The notes under the pieces were generated by a model. That model did not search any database. It saw only the letters and a program-made list of their open reading frames with translations, and was not told the DNA's origin. From Pseudomonadota bacterium (lineage in GTDB: Bacteria > Myxococcota_A > UBA9042): a stretch of DNA of 62,952 nt. The translations under genes and the position numbers were made by a program. Positions within the stretch are counted from its first letter, which is position 1. Every line of letters starts with the position of its first letter. The stretch covers positions 1-62,952 of the forward strand of contig SXRM01000257.1 in the NCBI GenBank assembly GCA_005792545.1. Reading direction: 5' to 3'. This document shows positions 55,438 to 56,061 of this stretch, one piece after another.

Positions 55438-56061
55438 TCACGTCTGTTCGTCCGCCGCCGGCCTGCCCGCCACCGGCAGCACGCAAAAAGCCCCGGTACT
55501 GAAGCCGTCCGGGCCAATCTGGTGGCAGCGGTTGAAGCGGGCCCGAAAGTTCTCCCAGGCGATGGTGGCGGTCAGCTCGACCAGCTGCTGCGGGGTCAGC
55601 GCCGCGCGCAGTCGCTCGTACAGGTCGTCCGGCACGGCCACCGGCGTGTCGCACATGGCGTCGGTCAGGGCCAGCGCGTCCTTTTCGAGCGCGGAGAACT
55701 GCTCGCTGTGTGCATAGTGGCCGATGGCTGCCAGCTTGTCGTCGCTCAGGCCTTTGTCCCTGCCGCCGGCAGAGCTGATGTCCAGTCAGAAGCGGCAGCC
55801 GATGAGCGACGCGGCCCGCAAGTTGCACAGCGTCTTGAGCGCGGCGGGCAGTGAAGTGGCACGACTGAGCGACTCTTCCATCAGCCCGTAGCCCAGCAGC
55901 ACGGCCGGCTGGTGGCCCTGGACCTTCATCGGCGTCGGTGTGCGCAGCTTGACCCGGAGCTTGGCCATGCCGTAGATGATGCGCAGGAATAGCGACGTAA
56001 AAATGCCGGCATCGGAGGCATCGCGCGGGGCAAGGCGGCTGGGCGTATTTTGCAGCGACAT
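55438..56061 (-). CDS. Carboxymuconolactone decarboxylase/AhpD-like protein with in-frame UGA, predicted selenoprotein (CxxU)
   Basis: ORFs 55786-56061 and 55438-55656 are in the same frame; readthrough gives ...LCNLRAASLIGCRF[U]LDISSAGGRDKGL...WENFRARFNRCHQIGPDGF; GGAG RBS upstream. Confidence 0.8.
55758..55774 (-). promoter_or_regulatory. Candidate bacterial SECIS hairpin downstream of UGA
   Basis: CUCUGCC-GGC-GGCAGGG starting 11 nt after UGA; apical loop 18 nt after UGA and begins GG. Confidence 0.65.

What the first reader, a model, noticed from the sequence alone, without database searches (positions are those of the whole stretch)
55438..56061. Probable selenoprotein: CMD/AhpD-like enzyme split by an in-frame UGA in a CxxU redox motif with a SECIS-like hairpin
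Seen: two minus-strand ORFs (55786-56061 and 55438-55656) lie in the same frame and together give a full-length CMD-family protein of about 207 codons. The only interruption is TGA at 55788-55786, exactly where the family has its second catalytic Cys (GC-R-F-[UGA]-L-D-I-S-S-A, versus GCxxC-x-D in Cys homologs). Immediately downstream is CUCUGCC-GGC-GGCAGGG (7 bp with one G-U); its apical loop starts with GG and lies 18 nt after the UGA. Known: bacterial SECIS elements sit just 3' of the UGA, with an apical loop about 16-37 nt away and a G in the first two loop positions; AhpD/CMD-like selenoproteins have been described. A standard gene caller would truncate or split this gene.
Basis: partly seen in the sequence, partly recalled or inferred. 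Interest (0 to 1): 0.88.

Follow-up and report, generated by a model that had tools for sequence, protein, structure and literature searches.

The report
Selenocysteine-containing AhpD-like redox enzyme
A bacterial gene that looks broken by a stop codon almost certainly reads that stop as the rare amino acid selenocysteine in the active site of an AhpD-like redox enzyme; about 80 distinct relatives from nine phyla do the same, and gene callers cut such genes short, although enzymes of this general kind were already known.

Summary
One open frame (window 56061-55438, minus strand, 207 codons) is interrupted only by TGA at 55788-55786, in GC-R-F-[UGA]-L-D. The column is not chance: 100 retrieved loci (81 distinct sequences, nine phyla by record title) carry TGA at exactly this codon, and nearly all the rest carry Cys. 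A 7-bp hairpin (55774-55758) with a GGC loop starts 18 nt after the UGA. It is conserved by base pairing and by otherwise avoided codons (Ser TCT 67/72 against 4% elsewhere in these genes), and is absent from the Cys homologs. The genome has selA, selB, selD, tRNA-Sec(UCA) and a second selenoprotein gene, formate dehydrogenase. All 26 Myxococcota genomes with the UGA form have selA (64% expected). The fold is AhpD/CMD-like (pLDDT 93); Sec sits at the peroxidatic position of a CxxU motif. Peroxide or disulfide reduction is inferred, not shown.

CxxU CMD/AhpD-like selenoproteins have been known since 2005, so this is a new member of a known kind. New here: its clade falls far below NCBI's nearest model (99 of 310 bits), and nine Sec relatives adjoin an ECF41-type sigma gene; the window gene does not.

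The parts
55438..56061 (-). Selenoprotein gene, AhpD-like/CMD family, 207 aa with Sec at residue 92; GGAG Shine-Dalgarno-like sequence 6 nt before the ATG
   Evidence: (PF02627, 31.2 bits, cut-off 23)
55786..55788 (-). In-frame UGA (Sec92) of the C89-x-x-U92 redox motif
   Evidence: TGA at the same codon in 81 distinct homologs, Cys in nearly all others
55758..55774 (-). SECIS hairpin, 7-bp stem CUCUGCC/GGCAGGG, apical loop GGC
   Evidence: meets bSECIS rules; pairing and synonymous-codon constraint conserved
55795..55797 (-). Cys89, first residue of the CxxU motif, invariant in 155 aligned homologs
55483..55485 (-). Cys193, third conserved Cys in the C-terminal tail (77 of 81 Sec members, 72 of 74 Cys members)
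56168..56848 (-). Upstream neighbour, Uma2-family protein; no DNA match at the orthologous place in G002/L018, so probably not part of the system

Best explanation
The gene encodes a selenoprotein of the AhpD-like/CMD superfamily. SelB, loaded with Sec-tRNA-Sec, binds the hairpin just 3' of the UGA and inserts selenocysteine as residue 92 instead of terminating. Sec92 lies in a C-x-x-U motif near the start of a helix, at the place of the peroxidatic Cys of AhpD. The most likely chemistry is that the Sec92 selenolate reduces a peroxide or another oxidised small molecule and is resolved by Cys89 as a selenenyl-sulfide, which a thioredoxin-like or low-molecular-weight thiol system then reduces; conserved Cys193 may relay electrons. 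Supported by the data: the frame, the UGA, the hairpin conservation, the Sec machinery, the family and the fold (the fold is a model). Inferred: insertion in vivo, the redox reaction, the substrate and the electron donor.
For: TGA at exactly this codon in 100 loci (81 distinct) from Myxococcota, Acidobacteriota, Gemmatimonadota, Chloroflexota, Actinomycetota, Binatota, Pseudomonadota, Planctomycetota and Thermodesulfobacteriota, Cys in nearly all the rest. Stem pairs 92.6% in Sec against 38% in Cys members, shuffle mean 83.6%, 0 of 1000 shuffles as high; other stems keep pairing by compensatory change (L094, L103, L125) or shift position (L095, L096). Ser TCT 67/72 and Arg AGA/AGG 69/72 inside the hairpin against 30/798 and 110/1187 elsewhere in the same genes. 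Purifying selection continues past the UGA, dN/dS 0.11 in codons 93-135. selA, selB, selD and tRNA-Sec(TCA) in the genome; a Sec formate dehydrogenase with TGA and a GGUCU loop. selA in 26 of 26 UGA-form genomes, P = 6e-6. AlphaFold model pLDDT 93.4, nearest solved folds PA0269, Atu0492, Bmp8 and AhpD.
Against: No expression or mass-spectrometry data. The hairpin stability alone is ordinary for a 67% G+C window, and 16 of 81 Sec members miss the -7.5 kcal/mol limit when only the core stem is scored. The Glu/His proton relay of M. tuberculosis AhpD is not conserved, so alkyl hydroperoxide reduction is not assured. SelB scores 235.7 bits, just under its NCBIfam cut-off of 242.25, though it has two SelB winged-helix domains.
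Confidence: 0.96

Rival explanations
1. A pseudogene or a base error: TGC read or mutated to TGA, leaving a broken CMD gene.
For: The window is from a draft assembly of 435 contigs. One same-genus copy (L015/L021, Lake Baikal MAG) has an extra in-frame TAA.
Against: TGA is kept at the same codon in 81 distinct sequences, with dN/dS about 0.1 after it. The hairpin is conserved and absent from Cys homologs. The G002/L018 ortholog is an independent genome.
Confidence: 0.02
2. UGA is translated by ordinary read-through or by a reassigned code (e.g. Trp), not as Sec.
For: Read-through would also give a full-length product.
Against: The homologous residue is Cys, never Trp. UGA is a normal stop here, including this gene's own end. 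tRNA-Sec(TCA), selA, selB and selD are present. The downstream hairpin is constrained.
Confidence: 0.01
3. It is a Sec enzyme, but not a peroxidase: for example a disulfide reductase or a reductive dehalogenase like Bmp8, which has the same fold.
For: Bmp8 is among the nearest solved structures. The AhpD Glu and His positions are variable here. An archaeal CMD homolog has disulfide reductase activity (PMC3426412, citing Lessner and Ferry 2007).
Against: Nothing tested separates these activities. The Bmp8 halopyrrole substrate is specific to marine bacteria (own knowledge).
Confidence: 0.3

Closest known systems
NF053654 GroundWater_YciW, 'YciW-related (seleno)protein' (NCBIfam)
   Same: Best NCBIfam match of every Sec and Cys member scanned; same length and CxxU/CxxC region
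   Different: The window scores 99.4 bits and other members 85-132, against a cut-off of 310, so they lie outside that narrow family
AhpD-like protein (COG2128/TIGR01926) and CMD-domain CxxU selenoproteins of the Sargasso Sea set (PMC1088965; PMC9312934; PMC13188914)
   Same: CMD/AhpD-like proteins with the Sec in CxxU and a bacterial SECIS
   Different: TIGR01926 gives no hit to the window protein at E 0.001, and 26-38 bits in other members against a cut-off of 81.8. The exact CMD-like reference record could not be compared here, so identity with that family is open
PA0269 (2ijc, 2o4d, 7xw1), Atu0492 (2gmy) and Bmp8 debrominase (6ohi)
   Same: Fold (TM-score 0.76-0.91 by target length) and 20-25% identity; a GCxFC-x-D motif is seen in the printed 2gmy alignment
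   Different: Cys, not Sec, at the second position
ECF41-linked carboxymuconolactone decarboxylases (PMC3426412)
   Same: Nine Sec relatives adjoin a sigma gene with a SnoaL-like C-terminal domain in the one representative scanned; six carry TGTCACA-N16/17-CGTC upstream
   Different: The paper says all linked CMDs have CxxC; these have CxxU. The window gene has neither neighbour nor promoter

Membership tests
Bacterial selenoprotein | In-frame UGA aligned with Cys in homologs | tested here: met
Bacterial selenoprotein | bSECIS: loop 3-9 nt, upper stem 4-16 bp, G in first two loop bases, 16-37 nt from UGA, MFE <= -7.5 kcal/mol (PMC13188914) | tested here: met
   Loop GGC, 7 bp, 18 nt, -9.1 kcal/mol
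Bacterial selenoprotein | selA, selB, selD and tRNA-Sec in the genome | tested here: met
   SelB slightly under the NCBIfam cut-off but with SelB-wing_2 and SelB-wing_3 domains
Bacterial selenoprotein | Sec shown in the protein | not testable with these tools
   Needs 75Se labelling or mass spectrometry
PF02627 CMD/AhpD-like superfamily | Pfam gathering score and fold | tested here: met
   31.2 bits against 23; fold match to AhpD/PA0269
AhpD alkylhydroperoxidase sensu stricto | CxxC (or CxxU) plus Glu and His proton relay (E118, H137 of M. tuberculosis AhpD, own knowledge) | tested here: not met
   Position 12 before Cys89 and position 4 after Sec92 are variable
NF053654 GroundWater_YciW | Score over the 310-bit cut-off | tested here: not met
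   99.4 bits
TIGR01926 peroxidase-related (AhpD-like, COG2128) | Score over the 81.8-bit cut-off | tested here: not met
   No hit of the window protein at E 0.001; other members 26-38 bits
ECF41 regulon (COE gene) | Adjacent ECF41 sigma gene or TGTCACA-N16-CGTC promoter | tested here: not met
   Not met for the window gene; met for nine and six relatives respectively

The most novel reading that the evidence does not exclude
The window gene belongs to a large, mostly mis-annotated selenoprotein family spread over at least nine bacterial phyla, part of which forms a selenocysteine branch of the ECF41 sigma-factor regulon that has not been described; its members switch between Sec and Cys with gain or loss of the hairpin.
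Probability: 0.55. Interest if true: 0.5.

Novelty: new member of a known kind. Interest (0 to 1): 0.42.

Why it matters
It adds a well-supported selenoprotein to Myxococcota and relatives, indicates that standard gene callers truncate this family at the UGA, and gives a Sec/Cys family with at least five exchanges on the tree for studying how SECIS hairpins arise and decay. The link to ECF41 sigma factors offers a handle on when such enzymes are expressed.

Tried and rejected
SelW-like Rdx (PF10262) as another selenoprotein of this genome: no match. Hairpin stability as evidence by itself: rejected, 59 of 1089 TGAs in the window do as well. Operon partners of the window gene: the Uma2 gene has no DNA match in the same-genus ortholog, where a different stretch lies between the radical SAM/membrane genes and this gene. 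An antisense neighbour cluster was discarded as spurious frames in G+C-rich DNA. ECF41 promoter upstream of the window gene: none. Papers joining selenocysteine, CMD and sigma factors: none relevant in the held library.

Full report
OBSERVATION. The minus strand from 56061 to 55438 is one frame with a single internal stop, TGA at 55788-55786. The gene's own end is also a TGA (55440-55438), while the same-genus ortholog ends in TAG, so the two TGAs in this gene have different roles. A GGAG lies six bases before the ATG.

FAMILY. Pfam CMD PF02627 matches above its cut-off. Protein searches return Cys homologs with GCxFC-x-D at the same place, and short proteins (114-143 aa) that begin at the Met right after this column, e.g. 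P0066, P0071, P0073, P0075-P0077. A Sec locus such as L080 reads TGA-ATG-GAC-ATC there, so such short entries look like products of gene callers starting after the UGA; the contigs of those entries were not inspected.

CONSERVATION OF THE UGA. In the genus of the window, G002 (84% identity) and G005 (47%) keep the TGA. G002 matches L018, a 'M_DeepCast_65m' MAG (probably Lake Tanganyika; that is from my own knowledge of the title), and G005 matches L021, a Lake Baikal MAG. The G005 copy has one further TAA and may be decaying or misassembled. A profile search of 387 Myxococcota genomes and a scan of 85,488 species genomes gave 100 loci with TGA at exactly this column and 14 with TGC or TGT. Over the first 45 nt, 81 are distinct. 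One locus (L052) has TCG with a Cys one residue earlier and a decayed hairpin, a likely loss of Sec. On a tree of 81 Sec and 74 Cys rows (L052 counted with Cys) the two states need 11 changes, at least five on well-supported branches; the window groups with L014 (99) and then L015 (92). The root is not inferred, so gain and loss cannot be told apart.

SECIS. The window hairpin has a 7-bp stem, a GGC loop and 18 nt between UGA and loop, -9.1 kcal/mol, within the published bSECIS limits (PMC13188914). Across 79 distinct Sec sequences the seven pairs are standard in 92.6% of cells, 38% in Cys homologs, 37-53% when slid, and 83.6% on average when one side is shuffled, with none of 1000 shuffles reaching the observed value. 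The shuffles ignore relatedness. Independent stems appear in L103 (CUCGGCC/GGCCGAG), L094 (UGCUAGC/GCUAGCA) and L125, and L095 and L096 have a hairpin displaced to 27 and 24 nt. Synonymous choice is telling: Ser five codons after the UGA is TCT in 67 of 72, against 30 of 798 Ser codons elsewhere in these genes; Arg nine codons after is AGA/AGG in 69 of 72, against 110 of 1187. The consensus fold of 77 Sec sequences gives this hairpin; that of Cys sequences gives none. The hairpin alone would not be convincing: 59 of 1089 TGAs in the window have one as stable.

READING THROUGH. Between the window and G002, dN/dS is 0.21 before the UGA, 0.11 for codons 93-135 (between the UGA and the next ATG), and 0.09 after that. 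The stretch that only read-through can translate is under purifying selection.

MACHINERY. selA (420.7 bits, cut-off 267.9), selD (361.1, cut-off 125) and tRNA-Sec with anticodon TCA (70.3 bits, cut-off 47) are present. selB is present with the EF-Tu domain and two SelB winged-helix domains, 235.7 bits against 242.25. The genome also has a formate dehydrogenase alpha subunit with one in-frame TGA in NVHQCAAT-U-HDP, followed by a hairpin with loop GGUCU. All 26 sampled Myxococcota genomes with a strong UGA-form hit have selA, against 249 of 387 overall, hypergeometric P = 6e-6, not corrected for relatedness. G202 and G366, two genomes with the Cys form, are not in the selA list.

STRUCTURE AND MECHANISM. 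AlphaFold2 gives an all-helical model (pLDDT 93.4, pTM 0.88) matching PA0269, Atu0492, Bmp8 and several AhpD structures. Cys89 and Asp94 are invariant in 155 rows; residue 92 is Sec or Cys with two exceptions; Cys193 is nearly invariant. The second Cys of AhpD is its peroxidatic residue (own knowledge), so Sec takes the attacking position. The Glu and His of the AhpD relay are not conserved. A selenol-based peroxide or disulfide reductase is the best guess; the substrate is open.

CONTEXT. The window gene has no conserved partner found here. In nine Sec relatives (Acidobacteriota, Actinomycetota, Chloroflexota, Kofleriaceae) a sigma gene lies next to it; the representative scanned has Sigma70 regions 2 and 4 and a SnoaL-like domain, which fits ECF41. 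Six of the nine carry TGTCACA-N16/17-CGTC upstream, against 0.05 expected over all Sec loci from shuffles; that is the ECF41 promoter (PMC3426412). That paper states all ECF41-linked CMDs have CxxC; these have CxxU.

NOVELTY. AhpD-like and CMD-domain CxxU selenoproteins were reported in 2005 (PMC1088965) and listed in reviews (PMC9312934, PMC13188914). NCBIfam's nearest model is far from being reached. I therefore call it a new member of a known kind, with the breadth of the family and the ECF41 link as the new parts.

Noticed in passing
L045, L053, L037, L030, L064, L057 (also L068, L071, L074): Sec-type CMD genes adjacent to ECF41-like sigma genes; the first six carry the ECF41 promoter TGTCACA-N16/17-CGTC. 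One Cys member (L040) carries the promoter too.
   Followed up: partly
L052, match region 4001-4471: Relative with GCPC-S instead of GCxF-U and a hairpin with one mismatch: looks like a loss of Sec with a SECIS remnant.
   Followed up: no
L015 and L021 (G005): Same-genus copy keeps the UGA and a SECIS but has a TAA 17 codons later: decaying gene or assembly error.
   Followed up: no
L128 (G000:C122:1482-3374): Second selenoprotein gene of this genome: formate dehydrogenase alpha with in-frame TGA and a GGUCU SECIS loop.
   Followed up: yes
window 48068-55195 (-): 2375-aa protein with Cys-rich Dicty_CTDC-type repeats and many RCC1 repeats, next to the selenoprotein gene.
   Followed up: no
window 57411-58586 (-) and 56935-57519 (-): Radical SAM protein and an unassigned gene without a Pfam or NCBIfam match, conserved upstream in the same-genus ortholog L018; the material between them and the selenoprotein gene differs.
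   Followed up: partly
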